Assembly (NCBI RefSeq): GCF_035825295.1 | Contig: NZ_JAYMGI010000002.1 | Location: 1,962,001-2,026,000, forward strand | Source: Actinacidiphila sp. DG2A-62 | GTDB taxonomy: Bacteria > Actinomycetota > Actinomycetes > Streptomycetales > Streptomycetaceae | Length of the DNA: 64,000 nucleotides | Reading direction: 5' to 3' | Part shown: positions 42,846-53,466 of the stretch, in pieces | Position numbering within the stretch: the first letter of the stretch is position 1 | Layout of the letters: the number at the start of each line of letters is the position of its first letter | Notes under the pieces: generated by a model | Told to the model about the DNA's origin: nothing | Database searches by the model: none | The model's input: only the letters and a program-made list of their open reading frames with translations | Program-made: the position numbers and the translations under genes

Positions 42846-43928
42846 TCACAGGAGCCCGCGGAGTGCCGCATCGGCCTGGTCCACGGCCGCGGTGAGGGTT
42901 TGGGCGTGGGCTGCTGGGAGTTTTCCCGCGTCGAGCCCCGACTTCTCGATCGCAGCTTGGAGCTTCTGTTCCTGCTCGCTGGTGAGGTGGGTGCTCACCG
43001 TGTGGTGCAGGACTTCCCGTGCAGCGTGGGCGTCGAGAGTGGCCGCTTCGGCGACGGCCTCTTTGAGGAGGGCGGCATCGGGGGCGGCGTGGTCCCGGAC
43101 CAGTTCGAGGGCAGTCAGTCCGGCCCGGGTCTGGAACACGGCGGTCATGGGGTCGGGCGGGGTGATCAACGCGCGGACGTCTTGTAGGACGAGATCCTGG
43201 TCTGGTTGCGGCGCGGGCCAGCAGCAGACGCGTAGGAGGGCCGCGATGGTGTTCTCCCACGGTTCAGTGGGGACGGTGGAGTCGATCGTGGCGCGGGCTT
43301 CCTGGTCGAGACCGCGTTCCAGCAGGGACATGATCTTGATTTGGCGTCCGTCGAGGAGGCGGTTGCCGATGCCGCGGTGTGCGGTCATGGCGTCAGCGGC
43401 TTCGGTCCAGCGCCCGATCCTCGCCAGGGCTCTCGCCCCGTCCACGAGCACGGTGATCCATAACTCCTCGCAGACTTTCCGGTGGCTGGCCTCGGTGTCG
43501 ATCAGCATCGACAGATCAACGGTGTTGCCGCGGATCTCTGCTGTGCCGCGTTTCTGGGCGGCGTGGTACAGCCGGGTGAGTACGTCGTAGGCGGCTTCGG
43601 CGTCGCCTTCGCGGGTCAGCAGCCGGGAGACGTTGATCAGGGGCATGAGCGCCATCACGGCGATGCCCCCCGTGAGGTGTCTGGCGTCGGCGAAGACCTT
43701 GTGCTGCCTCCAGCACAGCTCGGCGGCCAGGTCGGGCATCCCGACATCGGAGGCGATCAGAGCGGCGTAGTTGAGGACCCCGCTGGCGCGGACCACCAGA
43801 TCATGGTGGCTCGCGCCGGCGGGCTCGACGGTCAGCCCGGTGAGGTGGGCGATGCGCTCGTCCAGTGGTAGCGCGGGTGCCTTGGGGCGGCGGACCAGGG
43901 GGATGCGGCTGGCTATCGCGGGGACCAT
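42846..43928 (-). CDS. TPR-like helical protein of the lanthipeptide operon
   Basis: A 360-aa all-helical protein starting MVPAIASRIPLV, four bases after the methyltransferase stop. Repeating helical pairs such as MPLINVSRLLTREGDAEAAYDVLTRLYHAAQ and WITVLVDGARALARIGRWTEAADAM read as TPR-like. No catalytic motif or DNA-binding domain is evident. Similar proteins accompany Streptomyces RiPP loci, where a regulatory or scaffolding job is assumed. Last gene of the operon. Confidence 0.75.
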   Translation of the reverse strand: MVPAIASRIPLVRRPKAPALPLDERIAHLTGLTVEPAGASHHDLVVRASGVLNYAALIASDVGMPDLAAELCWRQHKVFADARHLTGGIAVMALMPLINVSRLLTREGDAEAAYDVLTRLYHAAQKRGTAEIRGNTVDLSMLIDTEASHRKVCEELWITVLVDGARALARIGRWTEAADAMTAHRGIGNRLLDGRQIKIMSLLERGLDQEARATIDSTVPTEPWENTIAALLRVCCWPAPQPDQDLVLQDVRALITPPDPMTAVFQTRAGLTALELVRDHAAPDAALLKEAVAEAATLDAHAAREVLHHTVSTHLTSEQEQKLQAAIEKSGLDAGKLPAAHAQTLTAAVDQADAALRGLL

Positions 43929-43932
43929 CGGG

Positions 43933-45993
43933 TCATCCCTTGCGGGGCCAGTCGATGACGAGTCGGCTGAAGGTCTTGTCGATGACGAAGCGCGGATCGG
44001 CAGCCGTGAGCTGGTCGCGGGCATCGCCGACGGCCATGCGGAAGGCGGGTTCCGGCGCGTGGTTGCCCCAGCCCTCGTCCCAGTCGCGGATCTCGCCCGC
44101 GACCCGGTCGGCGAGCTCGGCGGCGCGGGGCCCATGGCCGATGACGCCGATCTCCCAGAACCTGCCGTGCTCGTCCTCGCCCTGGCGCACGGTCAGGTAG
44201 GCCAGGGTGTCGCCGTGGAGTGCGGCCATGGAGCCCCAGCCGAAGTGCGGGGTGAAGCCGGGGCGGGTCCCGGGCATGCGGGACAGGCCGTTGGGCAGCA
44301 CCGAGGTGAGGTACAGGTACAGCCACTCCCAGGGGTCGCCCTGGCGGAACTTCACGCCGGTGTAGACCTTGGCCTGGTTCTGGTCCAGGACGGTGCGGAT
44401 CGCGTCGCGGTCCACCTGCTGCTCGCTGAAGGTCTCCAGCCGGACGGTCCCCTCACCGTCCATGGGTACCAGCGTGTAGATGTCGTCCATGACGCCCTTG
44501 CGCAGCGGCACGAACGTCGCCATCTCGCAGGACACCGTCCGCCAGTGGTCGCCGTCCCGCTCGAAGGCGAAGGACCGCGAGATGCTGCCCCGAATACGCA
44601 TCGGCAGAACCAGGCGCCCGCCGGGGGCGAGCTGGTCGAGCAGCTTCACCGGCACGTCGCCGGCGCCGACGGTGAACTGGATACGGTCGAAGGGGGCGTG
44701 CTCGGGGAGGCCGGCCGCACCGTCGCCCAGCACGACCGTCACGTTGGTGGTCCCGGCCTGCGCGAGGTTTTTGCGGGCGCCGTCCACGAGGTCCTGGTCC
44801 ACGTCGAGGGTCCACACGTGACCGCCGGGGGCGACGAGTCGGCCGAGGAGCGCGGCGTTGTAGCCGGTGGCGGCTCCGGCTTCCAGGATCTTGTGGCCGG
44901 GCTCGGCTCCCATCTGCTCCAGCTGGGTGGCGACGATCGAGGGTGCGGAGATGCAGGAGATCATCTCGCCGGTTTCGTCGTGCTTGGTGGGCACCGCGTC
45001 GTTGATGTACGCGGTCGGCAGGTCGACGCCGGGGAGGAACTGGTGGCGCTCGGTGTCGCGGAAGGCGGTGATGACTTCGGGAGTGCGCAGGTTGTGGTTG
45101 TCGATGAGGCGGCTGACGAGTGCTTCGCGCAGGTCAGAGGGGTCGGTGGCGGGGCTCACAGTGGTCTCCATTCCAGTGAGGCTAGAGGTCGGATGGGTGG
45201 TCGGGCGGCTGGACACGTCCGCTGACTCCCCGTCGGCGAAGGCGACTTGGCGGCCAAGCCAGGCCGTGGCAGCTTGCTCGGGAGTGGGCACCCCGGCACG
45301 GTTGAAGGTGAAGATCGCGTGATGGGCGAGTACGGCGCGCAGGCCCCGGGTCAGCCTCCCGTTCGCGGCCAGCTGCCTCAGTTGGCGCCCGGTGCTCTCG
45401 AACGCCGCGACGCGTTCGGCCCAGTAGGGTTCGGCGTCCGGCCGCAGGGCTGCGTCGGCGTTCATCAGACGCCGCATGGCCGCGATCGCCTGCTCGCGCC
45501 GCGGGCCGGTGGGCGGAGTGACGGGGGGTCGCAGCTGACCGAGCTTCGCCCAGACGTCACCGGTCTCGAACGGGTCCAGTCCTGCCGCCCGGAACATGGC
45601 GGAAAGGAGCAGGACGCAGCGTTCGCGGGCTCGGCCATCCGGGAGGGCGGATTCGGCCAGGGCGGCACGGCTGTCCGCACAGAACAGGTCGTGCGCGATG
45701 ATCAAGCCCTCGGGGCCGCCGAACGCTTCGGTCTCCGGCTCGTAGAGGCCGATCACCCAGCCCGTGGCCCTCTGCTCGGCGACGAGGCGGTCCAGCAATT
45801 CGGCTGCGGGTTGCGTGGTGCGCAGTCGCAGACCCCCGTCCTTGCGCAGGAAGTGGAACGGCTGCCCGCTCAGAGCGGACGACAGCGCGCCTGCGGCCTC
45901 GGGGGTTAGCCCGGCTCCGCCGGGAAAGGACACGCGGGCGTGCCACCAGTCTTTCTCGGCCGGGGTGGAAAGGTTCTCGTCGTCGAAAATCAT
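43933..45993 (-). CDS. One-ORF fusion: SpaB_C (thiopeptide-type/LanB elimination) domain plus FxLD-system PCMT-like O-methyltransferase
   Basis: A 686-aa reading frame. Residues ~12-255 match the SpaB_C/TIGR03891 domain: WWHARVSFPGG, IGLYEPETEAFGGPEGLIIAHDLFCADSRA. This removes glutamate from glutamylated Ser/Thr in class I lanthipeptides. From ~275 (ATG 45171) to ~480 it is a protein-isoaspartate-methyltransferase fold: ISAPSIVATQLEQM, SAM motif I ILEAGAATGYNAALL near 368-382, VVLGDGAAGLPEHAPFDRI. A C-terminal ~200-aa extension follows (WGSMAALHGDTLAYLTVRQG). Methyltransferases of the FxLD lanthipeptide system look like this. The fusion could be natural or an indel joining two genes, since a TAG lies 12 bases before ATG 45171 in another frame. 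Confidence 0.85.
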   Translation of the reverse strand: MIFDDENLSTPAEKDWWHARVSFPGGAGLTPEAAGALSSALSGQPFHFLRKDGGLRLRTTQPAAELLDRLVAEQRATGWVIGLYEPETEAFGGPEGLIIAHDLFCADSRAALAESALPDGRARERCVLLLSAMFRAAGLDPFETGDVWAKLGQLRPPVTPPTGPRREQAIAAMRRLMNADAALRPDAEPYWAERVAAFESTGRQLRQLAANGRLTRGLRAVLAHHAIFTFNRAGVPTPEQAATAWLGRQVAFADGESADVSSRPTTHPTSSLTGMETTVSPATDPSDLREALVSRLIDNHNLRTPEVITAFRDTERHQFLPGVDLPTAYINDAVPTKHDETGEMISCISAPSIVATQLEQMGAEPGHKILEAGAATGYNAALLGRLVAPGGHVWTLDVDQDLVDGARKNLAQAGTTNVTVVLGDGAAGLPEHAPFDRIQFTVGAGDVPVKLLDQLAPGGRLVLPMRIRGSISRSFAFERDGDHWRTVSCEMATFVPLRKGVMDDIYTLVPMDGEGTVRLETFSEQQVDRDAIRTVLDQNQAKVYTGVKFRQGDPWEWLYLYLTSVLPNGLSRMPGTRPGFTPHFGWGSMAALHGDTLAYLTVRQGEDEHGRFWEIGVIGHGPRAAELADRVAGEIRDWDEGWGNHAPEPAFRMAVGDARDQLTAADPRFVIDKTFSRLVIDWPRKG

Positions 45994-46037
45994 GGCGCTG
46001 GGCGCTCCTTGTGTGCTCGGTTCGGTTGGCGGTGGGC

Positions 46038-47108
46038 TCAGGTGATCAGTAGGGCGCGGGTCCAGCCGGTGGTGTCCGCGCCGTCCAGCGCCAGTTGCGC
46101 ACCGGCTCGGCCTTCCAAGAAACCGGGTTTGGTCAGCCGGTCCAGGCCGGTGGCCAGGCGCTGCTTCAGGTCTGTGACCAGCAGTACGAAGCGGTCCGGG
46201 GCACTGCTGTCGGTGGCGACGGCGCGGGCGACGGTCACCAGGCCGACCCAGCCGTGGCAGAGGGAGGCGTCGGTGATCCGGCCAAGACAGGCAGGGTCGG
46301 CCAGCGCGCGCACGATGGCTTCCTCTGCCGCGCGCCGGCGTACCGGATCGCCCAGAGCGAGGGCGGCCAGTTGCTGGGCGCGAGCGATACCGATCTCGCC
46401 GTAGCACCAGGACGGGCGGGAGGGCTCCGGCTCGGGCTTTTCGGCGGCCGACAGTTCACCGTGAGTGGTCCAGTAACGGCAGCCGTACACGTCCAGCCAA
46501 CGAGCGAACGCCCCGATGGCGTCCTGCTGACCGGGTACCGTCACATCGTGCTGAGCGGCGAGGGACAGTAGCGCCAGCGGACCGGCGATGCCGTGCGCTA
46601 CTCCGTTGTTGCCGTGGCCGCCGTCCATCTGCTCGCCGGCAGGACCGACCGCCGACCACCACCCCGGCAGCTCCCGACTTCCGACGCGCACCGGCTGCGA
46701 CAGAGACACCAGATAGGCCAGAACCTCTCGCAGCAGTGGTGAGGCCGTGCCGCGCATCAGCAGCAGCGCGGCCAGCCCGGTCAGACCTCGGATGAGGTCG
46801 AACTCTGCGAGGTGGGGTAAGTCCCCGGACACCTGCCGCCGACGCGCCGCTGCCAGCCGGACGGCCACGACGCGGTCCACCGCATCGCGGACTTCCCGGC
46901 CGGCACGCCCGGCACGGCCGAGCACGAATTCCAGAGCTGGGGCGCCGTGGTACAACGACGCGTTGCCGCCGGCGCTGACCCCGCCGGCCACTGCCTGCGC
47001 CAGACTGCTCCGCCCGGCCACGAGGTCGCCTCGCTCGATGTGCAGCAGCGTGATGCCCAGCGCGCCTTCCGACAGATCCTGCGTCCGGGGCAGGGGCGCC
47101 GCCGTCAT
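46038..47108 (-). CDS. LanC-type lanthionine cyclase
   Basis: A 356-aa zinc cyclase that adds Cys thiols to dehydroalanine/dehydrobutyrine. Zinc ligands Cys235 (SWCYGEIG) and Cys284-His285 (LCHGWVG) are present, as are the GNNGVAHGIAGPLALL helix and the early GALGITLLHIE motif. ATG 47108 overlaps the LanB stop (ATGA), showing tight coupling. Positioned between the LanB-type protein and the SpaB_C-methyltransferase. Confidence 0.92.
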   Translation of the reverse strand: MTAAPLPRTQDLSEGALGITLLHIERGDLVAGRSSLAQAVAGGVSAGGNASLYHGAPALEFVLGRAGRAGREVRDAVDRVVAVRLAAARRRQVSGDLPHLAEFDLIRGLTGLAALLLMRGTASPLLREVLAYLVSLSQPVRVGSRELPGWWSAVGPAGEQMDGGHGNNGVAHGIAGPLALLSLAAQHDVTVPGQQDAIGAFARWLDVYGCRYWTTHGELSAAEKPEPEPSRPSWCYGEIGIARAQQLAALALGDPVRRRAAEEAIVRALADPACLGRITDASLCHGWVGLVTVARAVATDSSAPDRFVLLVTDLKQRLATGLDRLTKPGFLEGRAGAQLALDGADTTGWTRALLIT

Positions 47109-49144
47109 GAGCGCGTCCGCAGTGGGACGACGATGCTGTGGGCACGGCCGCCGAGCCATCCGTCGGCATCCGGCGGCGGAGCGTCGTGCAGTTGCGCGAC
47201 ACCGGTCGGGCTGGCATCCAGGTGGGCACGCAGCAGGTCCAGGTGCATAGCCTGGTCGAGGTCGAGGGGGAGCCGTTGGTCGTCCTCCGCCAACAGCACG
47301 CGGCTCGGCGCATGGAACCGGCCCAGCCAGGCGTGCAGCCCTTCGGCCCACTCGTCCAGGCTGGCCGTATGGCTGGGCAGGTCCTGGGCGCGCAGCTTCC
47401 ACCGCGCGGACGCCAGGATCGACCGCCGGTAGTGCAGCGCCGGCGTGAACGGCAACGTCCATGCGGCGCCCCAGTCGAACCAGGTCACCTGCGGCGCCGC
47501 GGCCCGGCTGATCTCGGCGAGGAATCGTGGCAGGGCAGGTGTGTAGTTGTTCCACAGGAAGTTGATCGCGGTGGGTGCGAGAACTTCCAGGTGCGTGCCG
47601 GTGGCGGCCTCGGTGAGGTAGAGGCGGCCGTCGCGTAGGCCGACGGCAAGGTCGGACGGGAGCAGCACCTCCTCCGTGCGGTGCCGGAACTCTCCGACGC
47701 TGATCACCCGCGGCAGCGCCTGGGGGGCGCGCGTCAGCAGGTCCGCGTGGACGCGGGCGGCGTGGAAGGAGAGTTGGACCAGTTCCGCGCCGGGCTCGAC
47801 TGCGGGCAGTCCGGTGTACGCCGCGCCGGCCTCTGGGAACAGGTGCCAGAACCGTCCCGTCATCGAGCCGGCAGCGCGGGAGACAGCGGACACCTGGAGT
47901 CGGAAGTCCCCGCGGTCCAGAGCATCTGTCGAGCCGGCCCGAACCTGCATGCTCAGCTCCAGGTGGGGCGGACGAAGAGCGGCCTTGCCCGCAGCGGCCT
48001 CCAACTGCTCGATCATCGCGCCGGACAGGCCCACCGACCTGTTGCCCTCGACGCCCGCGATACCCGCCCACTCCAGAAGGAGCCTGTCCCGCCGGGTCAT
48101 CGGACGGGGCGCCTCGGACACCTTGCCGAACCCCTCGGGAAAGCCCAGGCCCCGCTCGCTGTCGGTCACCAGCTCCAGCGGCACCTCGACGCCCTCGCCG
48201 TACCGCTCGGCGAACTGCTCGGCGTACCGGCGCCACACCCTGGTTCCCATCGGGTGCGCGGCAAGCCGGGTCAGGACCGTCGCAGTGGTCTCCGCCTCCG
48301 TCAAGACCGCCTCAGGTAACCGCACCGCGGCGTCCAGCCGCAGATCCGACGCCGTCGAACTGCTGCGGATGTCCTCGCGCAGAGCGGCCGGCAGGCAGAC
48401 GGTCGGATCGACCACGGTGGCGGGTGCTCGCAGTGAGGAACGCAGCAGCCGTACCCTCAGGAGCTGCGCGAGCAGCCCGGCCCGGTGGTGCGGGGCCGTG
48501 TTCGGGAACTCGGCAGCGAGCTTGCCCAACAGGGCCGAGTACCGGAGCGGTGACCGGGCCGCGTCGAGTACCAGCGCCACTGCGGGCGTCAACGCGAGAG
48601 AGAACTCCGAGGCGCCCTCGGAGGGGACGTAGACGCGCCCGCCTCGCCGTTGCGCGAGGTTGTTGAGACACACGTCGATGTCGGCCATCCGCTCGGCGTC
48701 CGCCTCCCAGGCGCTGATCGCCGCGTCCACCACCACTGGGTCCGGCCGGACGACCGCCTGGTGCCGGTCGCCGACACGAGCTTCGGTCGTACCGCCGAAC
48801 TCGATTGCGGCGACGCCCGCGAACAGGCCGTACGGGGTGGAGCGGCCCGTGTACCTGATGGCGTATCGCGCGGTGGCCAGCGCCGCTCGCCGTACCCGAC
48901 GTAGCTTCGGGGATCGTCCGTCGAGGATCGACCGGACTTGGCGGGCAAGGTCCGGGCTCGCGCCGGCCACGGCCTGACCGAAGGTGTCATCGGCCCACGC
49001 CGCGGTCAGCCACGAACGCCATCGTTCGAGTGAGGCGTCAGACCCCGGCCAGGGCGGCACGTCCGGTCCGGTGAGGTTCACGGCGGCGCGTAGCATCCCG
49101 CCGTCGACGCCGCGATACCAGCTATGGCGTGATCGTGTCATCAT
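47105..49144 (-). CDS. LanB-type lantibiotic dehydratase, glutamylation domain only
   Basis: A 679-aa N-terminal Lant_dehydr domain protein that uses glutamyl-tRNA to activate Ser/Thr of the precursor. Diagnostic ARYAIRYTGRSTPYGLFAG at ~91-110, NNLAQRRGGRVYVPSEG, and the C-terminal VLAPTAINFLWNNYTPALPRFL. A full LanB is ~1000 aa; the missing elimination domain is encoded in the downstream fusion gene, so this is a split LanB. Start ATG 49144 chosen from GGAG at 49150-49153; ATG 49141 and GTG 49150 are alternatives. It follows the precursor gene after a strong hairpin. Confidence 0.9.
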   Translation of the reverse strand: MMTRSRHSWYRGVDGGMLRAAVNLTGPDVPPWPGSDASLERWRSWLTAAWADDTFGQAVAGASPDLARQVRSILDGRSPKLRRVRRAALATARYAIRYTGRSTPYGLFAGVAAIEFGGTTEARVGDRHQAVVRPDPVVVDAAISAWEADAERMADIDVCLNNLAQRRGGRVYVPSEGASEFSLALTPAVALVLDAARSPLRYSALLGKLAAEFPNTAPHHRAGLLAQLLRVRLLRSSLRAPATVVDPTVCLPAALREDIRSSSTASDLRLDAAVRLPEAVLTEAETTATVLTRLAAHPMGTRVWRRYAEQFAERYGEGVEVPLELVTDSERGLGFPEGFGKVSEAPRPMTRRDRLLLEWAGIAGVEGNRSVGLSGAMIEQLEAAAGKAALRPPHLELSMQVRAGSTDALDRGDFRLQVSAVSRAAGSMTGRFWHLFPEAGAAYTGLPAVEPGAELVQLSFHAARVHADLLTRAPQALPRVISVGEFRHRTEEVLLPSDLAVGLRDGRLYLTEAATGTHLEVLAPTAINFLWNNYTPALPRFLAEISRAAAPQVTWFDWGAAWTLPFTPALHYRRSILASARWKLRAQDLPSHTASLDEWAEGLHAWLGRFHAPSRVLLAEDDQRLPLDLDQAMHLDLLRAHLDASPTGVAQLHDAPPPDADGWLGGRAHSIVVPLRTRS

Positions 49145-49170
49145 CCACACTCCGTTCCTGGCAGAGGGCG

Positions 49171-49200
49171 CGGGCTGGACGGGGAACCCCGTCCAGCCCG
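49171..49200 (-). terminator. Read-through hairpin between precursor and lanB
   Basis: Perfect 14-bp inverted repeat CGGGCTGGACGGGG / CCCCGTCCAGCCCG with a two-base centre lies between the precursor stop (49220) and the dehydratase start (49144). Such hairpins in lanthipeptide operons let the precursor be made in excess over the enzymes. Confidence 0.85.
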
Positions 49201-49219
49201 CCGTGACGAACCGACCTGG

Positions 49220-49402
49220 CTACGAGGTGGTGCAGGCGCTCGGGCAGGAGCTACCGCAGTTGTCGCCGGTGCCGCACATCAGCACCGTCTCGGTTGCCGG
49301 AGTGCCCTCGATGAAGCTGATGTCGAGCCCGAACGGATCGTCGTCCACGACCTCGGCGACCGACGGCATGGCAGCCGCCGGCTCACCCAGTTGAACGGTC
49401 AT
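49220..49402 (-). CDS. FxLD family class I lanthipeptide precursor
   Basis: A 60-aa peptide with AAGGAGG seven bases upstream of ATG 49402. The leader carries the family motif DPFGLD (F24-G-L-D27), after MTVQLGEPAAAMPSVAEVV. The C-terminal core ends CGTGDNCGSSCPSACTTS: four Cys (43, 49, 53, 57) with Thr45, Ser51, Ser52, Ser55, Thr58, Thr59, Ser60 (and Thr34/37/39) available for dehydration. Asp47-Asn48 is the obvious candidate for the isoaspartate-type methyltransferase. First gene of the operon; lanB, lanC and the methyltransferase follow. No dedicated protease or transporter is seen. Confidence 0.9.
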   Translation of the reverse strand: MTVQLGEPAAAMPSVAEVVDDDPFGLDISFIEGTPATETVLMCGTGDNCGSSCPSACTTS

Positions 49403-49649: not shown

Positions 49650-49931
49650 TCAGGTCGCTCCGGGGCGTTTGCGCTCCAGGATCACGAGGGGGCAGTTGAG
49701 GGCGTCGGCGATCTTCTTGAGGTTCGCGGGGGTGGCGCTGCGCCAGCCGGACTCGATCTCTCCCATCAGCTGTTCGGAGACTCCGATCTCCCTGGCGAGG
49801 GCCCGTTTGGTCAGCCCGGCCTTCTCCCGGGCCCAGCGCACGGCCTCGGGTTCCTGGTGCAGGCGCCGGGGAGCCGTCCTCGTGCGGTGGACCGTGGGGC
49901 GTTCCACGGCATCTCCCTTCAGGGAATTCAT
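49650..49931 (-). CDS. Small XRE-family HTH protein
   Basis: A 93-aa protein. HTH from ~30 to 85: VRWAREKAGLTKRALAREIGVSEQLMGEIESGWRSATPANLKKIADALN. No sensor domain. It lies upstream of the lanthipeptide precursor on the same strand, separated by ~250 bases, so it could regulate that operon or belong to the regulatory block further upstream. The intervening 247 bases carry only tiny ORFs and presumably the precursor promoter. Confidence 0.88.
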   Translation of the reverse strand: MNSLKGDAVERPTVHRTRTAPRRLHQEPEAVRWAREKAGLTKRALAREIGVSEQLMGEIESGWRSATPANLKKIADALNCPLVILERKRPGAT

Positions 49932-50120
49932 GGCGGTACGGGTTCGCGCGGTGCGCGGGCTCCGGTCCCGTCGCGCTCTGGACCGCGTTCGACCCCGCTC
50001 CGCCTCACGGGGGAGGGAAGGCGGAGCGGGGAGTTCAGGGGGTGGTGTGATGGTGGTTCCGGGCGCGGGGTGGGTCCGCGGCGTGTTCGGGTGTTTAGGA
50101 TCTGCCGGCGGCCGGTGTGG

Positions 50121-50531
50121 CTATGCGGGGGTGGGCTCGGGGTGGGCGGGGCTGGGACGGGGGTTCCAGCGGTCGTGGAGTTCCCAGGTGTGGCCGCCGG
50201 GGTGGCCCTCATATTCGCCGCAGCCGCCGAGGTCGGGGTGGGAGGCGGGGCAGTCGGGGAGAACGAGCAGCGTGTCGGGGGTGTCGTCCTGGGGCCATCG
50301 GCTCCAGACGGCGGTGTTGTCGTCGACGTCGTGGACCAGGGCGTAGTGATGGCCGGCGGCGTGGTGTTCGAGGGTGCAGCGCAGGTCGCGGATGTCCGCG
50401 GGCCTGCAGTAGTCGTCCGCCGACCATGCCAGGGCGGTGAGTGCGAGCCGGTCGGGCAGGACCGTCATGGTCGAGCAGACGGCCCGGCGGGTGGGCCTGG
50501 GGAGGGGGCTGGTGCTGAGCGTGTGGTTCAC
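50121..50531 (-). CDS. Small Cys/His-rich protein of unknown function
   Basis: A 136-aa protein starting at GTG 50531 (VNHTLSTSPL). Cys and His cluster in two places (CTLEHHAAGHHYALVHDVDD and CGEYEGHPGGHTW), suggesting metal binding. Not recognised as a named family. In the same-strand regulatory block between the XRE gene and the HATPase operon. Confidence 0.6.
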   Translation of the reverse strand: MNHTLSTSPLPRPTRRAVCSTMTVLPDRLALTALAWSADDYCRPADIRDLRCTLEHHAAGHHYALVHDVDDNTAVWSRWPQDDTPDTLLVLPDCPASHPDLGGCGEYEGHPGGHTWELHDRWNPRPSPAHPEPTPA

Positions 50532-50630
50532 GGCGTGTTCCTGGAGTGAGTGAATGCGTACGAGTTCGTCTGCGGCGGGGTGAGGTGAGTTCGGGAGAAC
50601 TGGTCGGGGGTGGTGCTCGGGTGAGGGGGT

Positions 50631-51107
50631 CTACGGCAGGCGGCGATGCCGCCCGCTCGGAGGGGAGAGCGCGTGCGGCCTGATCGCGCCGACGGTGGTC
50701 AGGCCCAGTTCGGGGCCGGTGTCGCGGGCCATCTGCGTGTCGAGGATCTGGTCGGCCAGCGACTGCGTACACGCCGCGCATGCGAACACGTCCGCGCTGA
50801 CACCAAGCACCGTGGCCGGCCCCAGCCACACCACCCGCGCCGATTCACGCCCGCACCACAACCAACAACGCCCGGTCACCCAGAGGTTGTCGTCGTCCCT
50901 CTCGGCGACGGGAGGCAGCCGCCACGGTGCGGCACGGCGGAACCGGTCGAGCGGGGATTCCGTAGATCGGGTGGCGTGCAACGCTTCGTCACCGCGGGCC
51001 TCGGCCTTCCCCGTGCGAGCGGAGGGTCGAGCGTGCTTGTCCAGTCGGGCGTCGTTCTCCTCCGGCGCCTCCGTGCGGCGCAGCAGTGCGCACTGGGCCT
51101 CGGTCAT
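50631..51107 (-). CDS. Unknown protein with putative Cys4 metal site, coupled to the HATPase
   Basis: A 158-aa protein starting MTEAQCALLRRTEAPEEND; ATG overlaps the HATPase stop (ATGA). The second half contains GRCWLWCGRESARVVWLG and VFACAACTQSLADQIL, four cysteines arranged as two CxxC-like knuckles. This resembles small zinc-binding proteins found beside Streptomyces HTH/ATPase pairs. Function unknown. Confidence 0.65.
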   Translation of the reverse strand: MTEAQCALLRRTEAPEENDARLDKHARPSARTGKAEARGDEALHATRSTESPLDRFRRAAPWRLPPVAERDDDNLWVTGRCWLWCGRESARVVWLGPATVLGVSADVFACAACTQSLADQILDTQMARDTGPELGLTTVGAIRPHALSPPSGRHRRLP

Positions 51108-51592
51108 CGACCCGCACCCCCGAGGGTCAGCGTGCACCAGGTCGTCGTGCCGTCGGGGCTGACACCCCACTCGTCGGCGATCGAGGCCACGAGGAACAGC
51201 CCGCGGCCGGACTCGCTGTCGGCGTCGGCAACGGTCAACTGCGGCCGGTGATGCGATCCGTCGTCGACCGCAATCAACAGCCCCTGCAGAGTGATCAACA
51301 GACGGAACCCGATCTCGCCGTGCTGGCCGTACTGCAGGGCGTTCGTGACGAGTTCGCTGACCAGCAGCCTCGCATCGTCCGCGAGCGAGCCCAATCCCCA
51401 AGCAGACAACTTGGCTTCGGTGAGGTGGCGAAGCCGACCCACCCACTTGACCACGGGAGTTCCTTCGCTTCCACCATCTGTGGCGTTGGCGAAAATCCGC
51501 ACGTCCAGCTCGTCGCAGGTCGGTTCGCCGACGTCGGGAACCTCGGCGTTGGGTGTGGCGGTGTTCGTCGACGGATGCGTTGCCCGGGTCAT
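51104..51592 (-). CDS. HATPase_c ATP-binding protein (anti-sigma/RsbW-like)
   Basis: A 162-aa protein: a ~45-aa variable N-terminus, then LSAWGLGSLADDARLLVSELVTNALQYG (N box), LLIAVDDGS, and DSESGRGLFLVASIADEWGVS (G box). Same architecture as the protein at 28.8-29.3 kb but not a recent duplicate. ATGA overlaps at both ends tie it to the neighbouring genes, so it is the third gene of a four-gene coupled operon. Confidence 0.87.
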   Translation of the reverse strand: MTRATHPSTNTATPNAEVPDVGEPTCDELDVRIFANATDGGSEGTPVVKWVGRLRHLTEAKLSAWGLGSLADDARLLVSELVTNALQYGQHGEIGFRLLITLQGLLIAVDDGSHHRPQLTVADADSESGRGLFLVASIADEWGVSPDGTTTWCTLTLGGAGR

Positions 51593-51756
51593 GAGTCCGA
51601 CCCCCCTCTCCGGGGGCGGACGAGACGCGGCACTTTCACGGCCGGAGCACGTTGCGCAGCGGCCACGGCCGTGCTTGCCGAGTGCAGGCCGGCGGCAGCC
51701 GAGAGAAGGTTCTCGCGGCGCTCCGAGTTCGCGGTGGTCAGCAGAAACGCGCTCAC
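51589..51756 (-). CDS. 55-aa ORF coupled at both ends
   Basis: GTG 51756 overlaps the stop of the gene above (GTGA) and its TGA overlaps the HATPase ATG (ATGA). The product VSAFLLTTANSERRENLL... is Ala/Arg-rich with no recognised domain. The double 4-base coupling is the argument for it being a translated gene or a coupling leader. Confidence 0.55.
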   Translation of the reverse strand: MSAFLLTTANSERRENLLSAAAGLHSASTAVAAAQRAPAVKVPRLVRPRRGGSDS

Positions 51757-51995
51757 GACGCCGCCTCCTGGCCGCCGCCCGGGCGCAGCAGAGCCGCCAA
51801 GTCAACGCAGAGCGCGTCAGCTTCCTCAGCGGTGAGGACCAGCACGGTCGTCGTTCCGGAAAGGCGCCTCCCGAGCCGGCGGAGCCGGACCGGGATGGCG
51901 ACACGTCCGGCCTGGGTCAGCTCTGGCGCCCCGGGGGCGCGTTCGACGCGCCAAGATCGCAGCGCCCCGTTCGGCAGCAGGTGACGTTCTGTCAT
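51753..51995 (-). CDS. Small protein of the coupled regulatory operon
   Basis: An 80-aa protein starting MTERHLLPNGALRSW (a GTG three codons upstream at 52004 is an alternative). It has an LVLTAEEADALCVDLAALLRPGGG C-terminal helix typical of small proteins next to Streptomyces HTH regulators. No named function. First gene of the operon running to 50631. Confidence 0.6.
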   Translation of the reverse strand: MTERHLLPNGALRSWRVERAPGAPELTQAGRVAIPVRLRRLGRRLSGTTTVLVLTAEEADALCVDLAALLRPGGGQEAAS

Positions 51996-52075
51996 GTCAC
52001 TCACCGTAGGAGCGCAGTCGCCCTGCGACCCTGAGAAAAAATCAGGGCAGACTAACGGTCAGGGAGTACCGCTTT

Positions 52076-53302
52076 CTAGGCGGTCATGCCGATGTGCTGA
52101 GCAACGGCCCGAAGATCCTCTCTCCACATGGGCTTTTCGCGCTTGAGGAGGTCCGCGACTGCCTCCCGAACCAGCGGCGAGAAGCCCACCTCTTCCGGGG
52201 ACTGCTCCGTGATTCGCTTGAGCATGAAAACCGTGCCGAAGTCGTCACGTTGGATGCGGTTGCAGTTCATGACCTCGATCAGGTACCGGGTTCGTCGCTC
52301 AAGGGGCAGCTCGGGGTTGTCCTCGACGCTGTCGGCCACGCGTAGAGCCTCCACCGTGTCGCCCTCTTCGGCCCGCAGGTGTACCGCGTGCATGGCCACG
52401 TTCGTCGGGCCGAAGCTGGTGTGCCAATCGTTGCGGTCCTTGCCAAGCCGTGCCGCTACCTGCTCGGCGCCGTGATACAGGTCCCAGGCCACCGGGCCCT
52501 GGTGGTCGCGGACGGCGGCGACGGCCGCCGACAAGTGGAGTGCTCCGTACGCGGACAGGTGCTCCGAGGTGGCGTCTTCGCCAGGGCGGCAGCTCTCGAT
52601 GGTCTCGCGCGCCAGGGCAACGCTGTCGGCCACGTCTCCCGACGACGTGAGTACGCACGCCAGGCTCCACGTAGCCGCGGCGAGGAGAGCCGGGTCGCCG
52701 ACCTGGTCGGCCAGGGCGACACCGCGATCGGCCGCGATGCGAGCCTGCATTGGTTCACCCACGCGTCGCAGCCATACTTGAGCCATGCCGTACACGGAGA
52801 TCAGCAGCGCCACCGCCTGCCGCTCTTGCTGCTCGCCGTCGGCGTCGCGCACGGCTGCATAGCCCTGCCGTAGGAGATTCGGAAGTCGGCCACCGATGTC
52901 GGCGTACCGGTTCCGGGTCTGCGTCTCGTACACCCGCCAGGCGTCGTTCACAGCAGCGCGGTACTCCTCGATGCGCACCTCGCCGATCCCGGACGGGAGC
53001 AGCGAAGAGGGCAAGGACAGAGTCCGGCGGATCGCCGGCACGGCCTCGTGGCCGGCGCGCGGCCCGGAAACCGCACTCGTCAGGACGCCGCCGGTCAAGT
53101 CCCTCAGATCACGGACGTGGAGCACCCGCGCGAGGTCGATCAGTACCGACAAGCGGTCGATGGGCAGGAAGCCTTTCTCGACCTTGTACGCCCAGTTCTC
53201 CGACTTACCGACCAACTCGGCCATGGCCTTCTGCGACAGGCCCCGGCGCTCGCGGTAGTAACGGATGCGGTCACCGATACCGAAGTCCTCTACGACGGCC
53301 AT
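52076..53302 (-). CDS. XRE-family HTH regulator with TPR-like C-terminus
   Basis: A 408-aa protein. HTH at ~10-65 (IGDRIRYYRERRGLSQKAMAELVGKSENWAYKVEKGFLPIDRLS). The remainder is TPR-like helical (LLISVYGMAQVWLRRVGEPMQARIAADRGVALADQVGD). ATG 53302 with GAGGGGA upstream. This type commonly pairs with HATPase and small proteins in Streptomyces. It lies 80 bases upstream of the coupled operon and is divergent from the HAD gene. Confidence 0.88.
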   Translation of the reverse strand: MAVVEDFGIGDRIRYYRERRGLSQKAMAELVGKSENWAYKVEKGFLPIDRLSVLIDLARVLHVRDLRDLTGGVLTSAVSGPRAGHEAVPAIRRTLSLPSSLLPSGIGEVRIEEYRAAVNDAWRVYETQTRNRYADIGGRLPNLLRQGYAAVRDADGEQQERQAVALLISVYGMAQVWLRRVGEPMQARIAADRGVALADQVGDPALLAAATWSLACVLTSSGDVADSVALARETIESCRPGEDATSEHLSAYGALHLSAAVAAVRDHQGPVAWDLYHGAEQVAARLGKDRNDWHTSFGPTNVAMHAVHLRAEEGDTVEALRVADSVEDNPELPLERRTRYLIEVMNCNRIQRDDFGTVFMLKRITEQSPEEVGFSPLVREAVADLLKREKPMWREDLRAVAQHIGMTA

Positions 53303-53466
53303 GGCCTGACGTCCCCTCAATCGGTCGAGTCAGTAGTCGCTATGCCTCCCGGCCAGGGTACGGCCCAGCGCTGGGAAGGCCGCAACCTTCGCCAACGGTT
53401 ACCATCCGAACGACAGCGCACCCACGCGCCGCCCTCGGCGCGAATATCGTCCGTACGGAGCGATCA

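What the first reader, a model, noticed from the sequence alone, without database searches (positions are those of the whole stretch)
42846..49402. Compact FxLD lanthipeptide cluster with a split LanB and an isoaspartate-type methyltransferase
Five same-strand genes: a 60-aa FGLD-leader precursor, the LanB glutamylation domain, LanC (coupled by ATGA), a SpaB_C-PCMT protein and a TPR-like protein. The core CGTGDNCGSSCPSACTTS has four Cys and seven Ser/Thr, and Asp47-Asn48 directly before Cys49 is a plausible site for methylation and succinimide/isoaspartate formation, as known for PCMT-like enzymes of class I lanthipeptides. The final structure (ring pattern, modified Asp) of this core is not one I know. 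No protease or transporter is present, so maturation depends on outside functions.
Basis: partly seen in the sequence, partly recalled or inferred. Interest (0 to 1): 0.85.

Follow-up and report, generated by a model that had tools for sequence, protein, structure and literature searches.

The report
Lanthipeptide operon with lone syn-type lyase
A five-gene actinobacterial operon encodes a small peptide, nearly identical in its 18-residue core across 13 genera, together with enzymes predicted to close four sulfur-bridged rings and to rearrange one aspartate; its only elimination domain belongs by sequence to a recently described type that would likely give the rings an unusual handedness.

Summary
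Observation confirmed: on the minus strand lie an FxLD precursor (TIGR04363, 57.8 bits, cut-off 30), a LanB without elimination domain, LanC, a lyase-PCMT fusion (TIGR04364) and a TPR-like protein. The general kind is known: lanthipeptides with an aspartate methyltransferase (olv, coi). (1) The lyase domain lacks the NisB R826 equivalent, and by motif H961, and has the lysine of the syn-acting lyases SptBb and CoiSA. In coi this lyase assists a full-length LanB; here the fused lyase is the operon's only one. Sixty related loci were found in 13 genera; LanB is short in all 54 with a single LanB match. Of 46 such genomes searched, 10 hold no other PF14028 match, so class I dehydration there would have to use it. 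(2) The core C-x-T-x-D-x-C-G-[ST]-S-C-P-S-A-C is fixed in 60 of 60 precursors and more constrained than the leader (pN/pS 0.16 against 0.60). Position 39 is Ser/Thr in 60 of 60, so the modified region probably starts before Cys43. Ring pattern and stereochemistry are inferred from mCoiA1. New variant of a known kind; product unobserved.

The parts
49220..49402 (-). FxLD precursor peptide, 60 aa; F24-G-L26-D27 leader motif; predicted ring residues T39/C43, T45/C49, S52/C57, C53/T59; Asp47 the likely methylation site
   Evidence: TIGR04363 57.8 bits; 272 relatives, best 120 listed; invariances; ring pairing inferred from mCoiA1 spacing
49170..49201 (-). 14-bp perfect hairpin between precursor and LanB; attenuator role inferred
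   Evidence: fold of the 79-base intergenic stretch; an uninterrupted stem of at least 8 pairs in 56 of 59 related intergenic stretches; no shuffle control; the terminator scan did not list it
47105..49141 (-). Short LanB: glutamylation domain only (678 aa from ATG 49141)
   Evidence: PF04738 530.8 bits, no PF14028; 673-693 aa in 54 of 54 related loci with a single LanB match
46038..47108 (-). LanC cyclase, 356 aa, with VAHG, WCYG and LCHG motifs aligned to NisC
   Evidence: PF05147 90.7 bits; alignment to 2g02/2g0d NisC and 8byk; AHG and CHG motifs in 56 of 56 and WCYG in 55 of 56 full related LanC matches
43933..45993 (-). Syn-type glutamyl-lyase domain (about residues 1-265; K51, R56, R58, E87; Ala90 at the NisB R826 place) fused to an aspartate O-methyltransferase (about 286-682)
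42846..43928 (-). TPR-like all-helical protein, 360 aa, last gene of the operon; probable CoiH counterpart
   Evidence: 456 relatives, best 120 listed; AlphaFold2 mean pLDDT 88; VIA top rows Rap and NprR, tied with generic TPR folds

Best explanation
This is a class I FxLD lanthipeptide operon whose short LanB lacks an elimination domain and whose only lyase domain, fused to an aspartate methyltransferase, carries the residues of the syn-acting glutamyl lyases, so it likely makes a four-ring peptide by syn elimination and would turn Asp47 inside the second ring into aspartimide and isoaspartate. Steps: (1) LanB glutamylates core Ser/Thr from Glu-tRNA (inferred from family). (2) The fused lyase removes glutamate with Lys51, giving (E)-Dhb from Thr and Dha from Ser (inferred from SptBb and CoiSA; shown here only at sequence level). 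(3) LanC closes T39-C43, T45-C49, S52-C57 and C53-T59 (inferred from spacing shared with mCoiA1). (4) The methyltransferase half then methylates Asp47, which cyclises and reopens largely to isoAsp (inferred from OlvSA). (5) Leader removal and export depend on outside functions, perhaps after Glu38 or nearby (guess). The TPR protein is probably a peptide- or enzyme-binding scaffold (inferred from fold and constant presence).
For: Profiles for four of the five genes; AlphaFold2 model for the fifth. Lyase domain, 56 rows: K51 in 55, R56 in 56, E87 in 56; the NisB R826 place is Ala in 53 and Thr in 3, never Arg; position 227 (H961 place) is Ile/Val/Leu in 55 and a gap in one. In contrast 11 of 11 aligned full-length LanB C-termini (of 32 full-length LanBs in the genus loci) keep the R826, H961, H963 and R966 equivalents. 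A tree of 55 domains puts the 20 window-type lyases with the extra lyases of the two-lyase clusters, apart from the 10 canonical ones at 100/100. LanB is 673-693 aa in 54 of 54 related loci with a single match. In 10 of 46 genomes the only PF14028 match is this domain. Published: CoiSA K46A accumulates glutamylated peptide, CoiSA(ED) can eliminate at all three CoiA1 threonines, and SptBb gives (E)-Dhb (PMC9011353, PMC9486935, PMC9890492).
Against: No product has been seen here or in what I read of the papers. CoiC could not close rings on (E)-Dhb at positions 43 and 50 (PMC9486935), so this LanC must differ for T45, which is untested. CoiSA handled a Ser substitution poorly, yet S52 is Ser in 60 of 60. 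T59 is missing in 4 of 60 precursors (S60 stays), so ring C53-T59 cannot be the same in all. The window's own genome also has a full-length LanB in another cluster (6.30 Mb), so help in trans is possible in this strain. The H961 equivalence rests on a fold-level range and motif reading, as the profile alignment covers only the R826 part. The 10 genomes are of unstated completeness. The pairing T39-C43 is inferred.
Confidence: 0.7

Rival explanations
1. Ordinary coi-like pathway in trans: the short LanB and fused lyase work together with a canonical anti lyase from another LanB elsewhere in the genome, giving mixed ring stereochemistry as in mCoiA1.
For: The window's genome has a full-length LanB at 6.30 Mb in a coi-like cluster. 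Of 46 window-type genomes 35 have two or more PF14028 matches. CoiC needs (Z)-Dhb for two rings.
Against: 10 of 46 genomes have no second PF14028 match, and 8 of those 10 have a single LanB, although they carry the same cassette and core.
Confidence: 0.17
2. The lyase-like domain is no longer a lyase here; it serves as a docking domain for the methyltransferase, or catalyses another step, as its fold relatives TbtD and PbtD do.
Against: The lysine, two arginines and glutamate of syn lyases are kept in at least 55 of 56 rows. Without it no elimination domain was found in 10 genomes, in nine of which the cassette's LanB reads in one frame, and glutamyl esters would be left in place.
Confidence: 0.08
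3. The short LanB is a peptide aminoacyl-tRNA ligase (PEARL-like) and the FxLD peptide a carrier rather than a lanthipeptide.
For: Small LanBs without elimination domain exist (PMC4979651), and carrier peptides of 3-thia-amino-acid pathways share an FxLD/E motif (PMC9303977); the PEARL link is otherwise recalled.
Against: A LanC is present in 60 of 60 loci, with zinc-ligand motifs in at least 55 of 56 full matches. Four Cys, T45, S52 and a Ser/Thr at 39 are invariant in 60 of 60 precursors, and a lyase-like domain lies next door.
Confidence: 0.04

Closest known systems
coi cluster of Streptomyces coelicolor A3(2), product mCoiA1 (PMC9486935)
   Same: Class I lanthipeptide; MT fused to a syn-type lyase (CoiSA); [quoted passage not shown] ring spacing that matches T45-C49, S52-C57 and C53-T59 here; no protease in the cluster.
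   Different: coi has a full-length CoiB with an anti lyase and needs both lyases; here LanB is short and the fused lyase is the only one. Here there is a further Cys (C43) with T39, and S52 in place of Thr50.
olv cluster of Streptomyces olivaceus, product OlvA(BCSA) (PMC13001092, PMC7268733, PMC9486935)
   Same: Aspartate methyltransferase acting on a conserved Asp in a MeLan ring; an extra N-terminal ring beside the three shared with mCoiA1.
   Different: olv has no additional lyase domain and a full-length OlvB; its extra N-terminal ring is Lan, here it would be MeLan.
spt cluster, SapT (PMC9011353, PMC9890492) and dmx, dmxorosin (PMC11855644)
   Same: Split LanB; in spt the separate lyase is the syn type with the conserved Lys.
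   Different: No methyltransferase is named in the spt cluster as described or in the dmx text (0 occurrences); no Asp modification was mentioned in what I read.
Precursor families I 1-4 of Walker et al. 2020 (PMC7268733)
   Same: Largest class I families, actinobacterial, conserved Asp plus PF01135 methyltransferase; standalone elimination domains fused to PCMT were already noted.
   Different: Their logos and supplements could not be read here, so whether and where this core falls among I 1-4 is not checked; syn lyases were reported only in 2022.

Membership tests
FxLD family lanthipeptide (TIGR04363) | Precursor scores above the curated cut-off | tested here: met
   57.8 bits against 30
Class I lanthipeptide | Separate LanB glutamylation domain and LanC cyclase beside a Cys/Ser/Thr-rich precursor | tested here: met
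   PF04738 530.8 bits, PF05147 90.7 bits
Class I lanthipeptide | (Methyl)lanthionine in the product | not testable with these tools
   needs mass spectrometry and NMR
Methyltransferase, FxLD system / LanSA (aspartate O-methyltransferase) | TIGR04364 above cut-off including the C-terminal extension | tested here: met
   428.9 bits against 320, profile 2-394 of 394
Methyltransferase, FxLD system / LanSA (aspartate O-methyltransferase) | Conserved Asp followed by Gly, Thr, Asn or Asp inside a T-x-D-x-C motif of the core | tested here: met
   T45 and D47 in 60 of 60, next residue T 33, N 25, G 2; n+1 residues as in PMC13001092
Methyltransferase, FxLD system / LanSA (aspartate O-methyltransferase) | Methylation and aspartimide/isoAsp at that Asp | not testable with these tools
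   enzyme assay needed
Syn-type glutamyl lyase (SptBb/CoiSA group) | Hydrophobic residue instead of NisB Arg826 | tested here: met
   Ala in 53, Thr in 3, Arg in 0 of 56 rows; the three Thr rows are not strictly hydrophobic; alignment to NisB
Syn-type glutamyl lyase (SptBb/CoiSA group) | Conserved Lys (K46 in CoiSA) five residues before the Arg pair | tested here: met
   K51 in 55 of 56, R56 in 56, R58 in 55 of 56; same spacing as K46/R51/R53 named in PMC9486935
Syn-type glutamyl lyase (SptBb/CoiSA group) | Loss of the catalytic His961 | tested here: inconclusive
   Ile/Val/Leu at the place read from the N-R motif in 55 of 56, one gap; fold ranges agree but no residue-level alignment there
Syn-type glutamyl lyase (SptBb/CoiSA group) | Gives (E)-Dhb and D-allo-L-MeLan | not testable with these tools
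   needs product stereochemistry
coi-type cluster | Full-length dehydratase with its own anti lyase beside the MT-fused syn lyase | tested here: not met
   LanB has no PF14028; 673-693 aa in 54 of 54 related loci with a single LanB match
RRNPP quorum-sensing TPR receptor (seriously considered for the TPR-like gene) | Fold match standing clear of other TPR folds, plus HTH or phosphatase module | tested here: inconclusive

The most novel reading that the evidence does not exclude
A lanthipeptide pathway in which every dehydration, of Ser and of Thr, runs through one syn lyase covalently joined to the aspartate methyltransferase, so that the isoaspartate sits inside a D-allo-L-methyllanthionine ring. 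Its near-invariant product is a conserved actinobacterial signal or morphogen, read or handled by the TPR protein, rather than a diversifying antibiotic.
Probability: 0.25. Interest if true: 0.8.

Novelty: new variant of a known kind. Interest (0 to 1): 0.55.

Why it matters
PMC9486935 states that MT-fused syn lyases occur in clusters that also hold a full-length dehydratase, and that coi needs both lyases. Here the same fusion stands alone in a conserved cassette, and in 10 of 46 genomes searched no other elimination domain was found. It is therefore a natural test of whether a syn lyase can do a whole lanthipeptide, Ser included, and whether LanC can close the Asp-bearing ring on (E)-Dhb. 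The core is more constrained than the leader, a reversal that points to a fixed target. The group, probably part of the large uncharacterised families I 1-4 of PMC7268733, becomes a well-defined target for isolation.

Tried and rejected
Antibiotic-only reading: not excluded, but the core conservation argues for a fixed function. Literature search for the core sequence strings: 0 papers; only the open library is covered. Search for CoiH, CoiSA and lanthimiditide listed one relevant paper among 20 shown of 810; a TPR/FxLD/lanthipeptide search gave one review that I did not open. The precursor has no solved relative by sequence (chance hits at E 0.76 or worse). P0211, a TPR-like protein joined to a PCMT, was considered as fusion evidence and dropped: the methyltransferase part stops early and it looks like a local deletion. 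The first precursor extraction read minus-strand loci in the wrong orientation and was redone. The promoter/terminator scan found no promoter and only one terminator-like site, inside LanB, within chance expectation. Profile comparison of the two lyase groups aligned only 119 columns, so the H961 place was read from motif and fold range. Conservon neighbours: the label is recalled, no family search. Twenty regions fetched as intermediate lyases were not used. The pN/pS ratios are uncorrected pairwise counts, meant only as core-against-leader contrast.
Full report

2. How common is it. The precursor has 272 relatives at E 0.01 or better; the best 120 were listed and all 120 carry Cys-x-Thr-Gly-Asp-x-Cys. 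In the genus, 25 of 35 genomes have some FxLD precursor, at 45 places. I examined 43 of the 45 places by precursor or by cluster; the window-type cassette turned up in 4 genomes (G000, G015, G027, G031). A scan of genome contigs with the short LanB (alignment A1) gave 60 loci. Their record titles name 13 genera: Streptomyces, Nonomuraea, Rhizohabitans, Streptoalloteichus, Microtetraspora, Microbispora, Actinomadura, Sphaerisporangium, Streptosporangium, Saccharopolyspora, Sinosporangium, Actinocorallia, Frankia. The scan finds close relatives only, so 60 is a lower bound. All six parts (precursor, LanB, LanC, lyase, MT, TPR) are found in 54 of 60, in these 54 on one strand and in the same order. 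Four of the six misses lie at contig ends (L094, L102, L105, L110); L106 lacks the last three parts inside a long contig; L143 lacks a precursor hit. In six loci (L103, L104, L142, L144, L148, L149) LanB or the lyase is in more than one piece.

3. The core. These loci were found through LanB, not through the precursor, so the core was free to vary. Among 60 precursors (59 loci plus the window) C43, T45, D47, C49, G50, S52, C53, P54, S55, A56, C57 and S60 are fixed in 60 of 60; position 48 is T 33, N 25, G 2; position 51 is Ser or Thr in 60; T59 in 56; position 44 is Ser in 49, and Gly, as in the window, in 8. Uncorrected pairwise pN/pS is 0.16 for the 18 core codons against 0.60 for the 24 codons before them. 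Position 39 is Thr in 58 and Ser in 2 of 60, and Thr/Ser in 120 of 120 listed proteins. Cys43 therefore has a constant candidate partner four residues upstream, with the same spacing as T45-C49.

5. The only lyase. I searched PF14028 in the genomes behind 46 of the 60 loci. Ten have exactly one match, one has none (L106, whose cassette is truncated) and 35 have two or more. Repeating the ten at E 1 gave the same single match each, and all ten lie inside the cassette's lyase (coordinates compared by hand). Eight of these ten have one LanB (in L104's genome in two pieces); G041 and G079 have further LanB-like matches. In these genomes, if the peptide is dehydrated by the class I route, the fused lyase must do it, unless a lyase lies in an unsequenced gap. 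PMC9486935 says that MT-fused syn lyases lie in clusters with a full-length dehydratase, so this arrangement differs from what is described there; its supplement could not be checked. The window's own genome has five PF14028 matches, among them a full-length LanB in a coi-like cluster at 6.30 Mb, so help in trans cannot be ruled out in this strain.

6. Inferred chemistry. In mCoiA1 Cys47, Cys55 and Cys51 pair with Thr43, Thr50 and Thr57. Shifted by two, these rings fall on T45-C49, S52-C57 and C53-T59 here. The extra T39-C43 would match the additional N-terminal ring of mOlvA. Asp47 lies inside T45-C49, as in the T-x-D-G-C motif; OlvSA gives 70-80% isoAsp at its Asp (PMC13001092, passages). 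All of this is inference from spacing and homology. A clear conflict remains: CoiC did not close rings on (E)-Dhb43 and (E)-Dhb50, so this LanC would have to accept (E)-Dhb at T45. Four of 60 precursors lack T59 and would need S60 or another acceptor.

7. Surroundings. In 18 of 55 loci with at least 2.6 kb beyond the TPR gene an ABC transporter of one family follows (16 seen by motif within 3 kb, two by family membership); L067 in the genus has one too (PF00005). The window has none and no protease among 15 flanking proteins searched. In 22 of 60 loci at least two of four conservon-like gene families lie nearby, mostly upstream (label recalled). A hairpin of 14 bp separates precursor and LanB; 56 of 59 related intergenic stretches fold with a stem of at least 8 pairs (no shuffle control), which fits an attenuator but does not show one.

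8. Verdict. The finding is real and well read. The kind is known, and the product class (lanthipeptide with aspartimide or isoAsp) has characterised members. What is new, as far as the texts I could read go, is the variant: a syn-type lyase fused to the aspartate methyltransferase as the only elimination domain, in a conserved five-gene cassette with a nearly fixed core. Paper use: PMC7268733 passages and section 8, PMC13001092 outline and passages, PMC10787088 passages, PMC11855644 passages, PMC9303977 one passage; Acedo 2019 itself was not held and is known only through the others.

Noticed in passing
L053 (G000:C2:4939000-4958900): A second copy of the same cassette in the same genome: intact precursor (P0072), LanB and methyltransferase in broken frames, two more PCMT-like copies in pieces, and another FxLD precursor with a shifted tail. 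Looks like a decaying cluster or a patch of assembly indels.
   Followed up: partly
L054 (G000:C2:6289000-6308900): A coi-like FxLD cluster in the same genome with full-length LanB, lyase-MT fusion and TPR-like gene; core ...TDDNCGNTCEKSTC....
   Followed up: partly
L067:15911-17752 and 18 of 55 related loci: ABC transporter downstream of the TPR gene in 18 of 55 related loci with enough sequence, and in L067; absent from the window.
   Followed up: partly
L093-L152, mostly upstream of the cassette: Conservon-like genes (histidine-kinase-like, roadblock, DUF742-like, GTPase; labels recalled), at least two of the four families in 22 of 60 loci.
   Followed up: partly
L084, L085: Standalone lyases of two clusters with the MT upstream group with MT-fused lyases in the tree, a sign of lyase-domain exchange between cluster types.
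   Followed up: no
window 49650-53320: Upstream minus-strand HTH genes (49650-49931; 52076-53320 with HTH_31), an HATPase-like protein (51104-51904) and an orphan (50121-50531), possible regulators.
   Followed up: no
L089, L090 (G023): Two FxLD clusters about 110 kb apart in one genome with identical hit scores and coordinates in the locus: a recent duplication or assembly repeat, and a type without the extra lyase.
   Followed up: no
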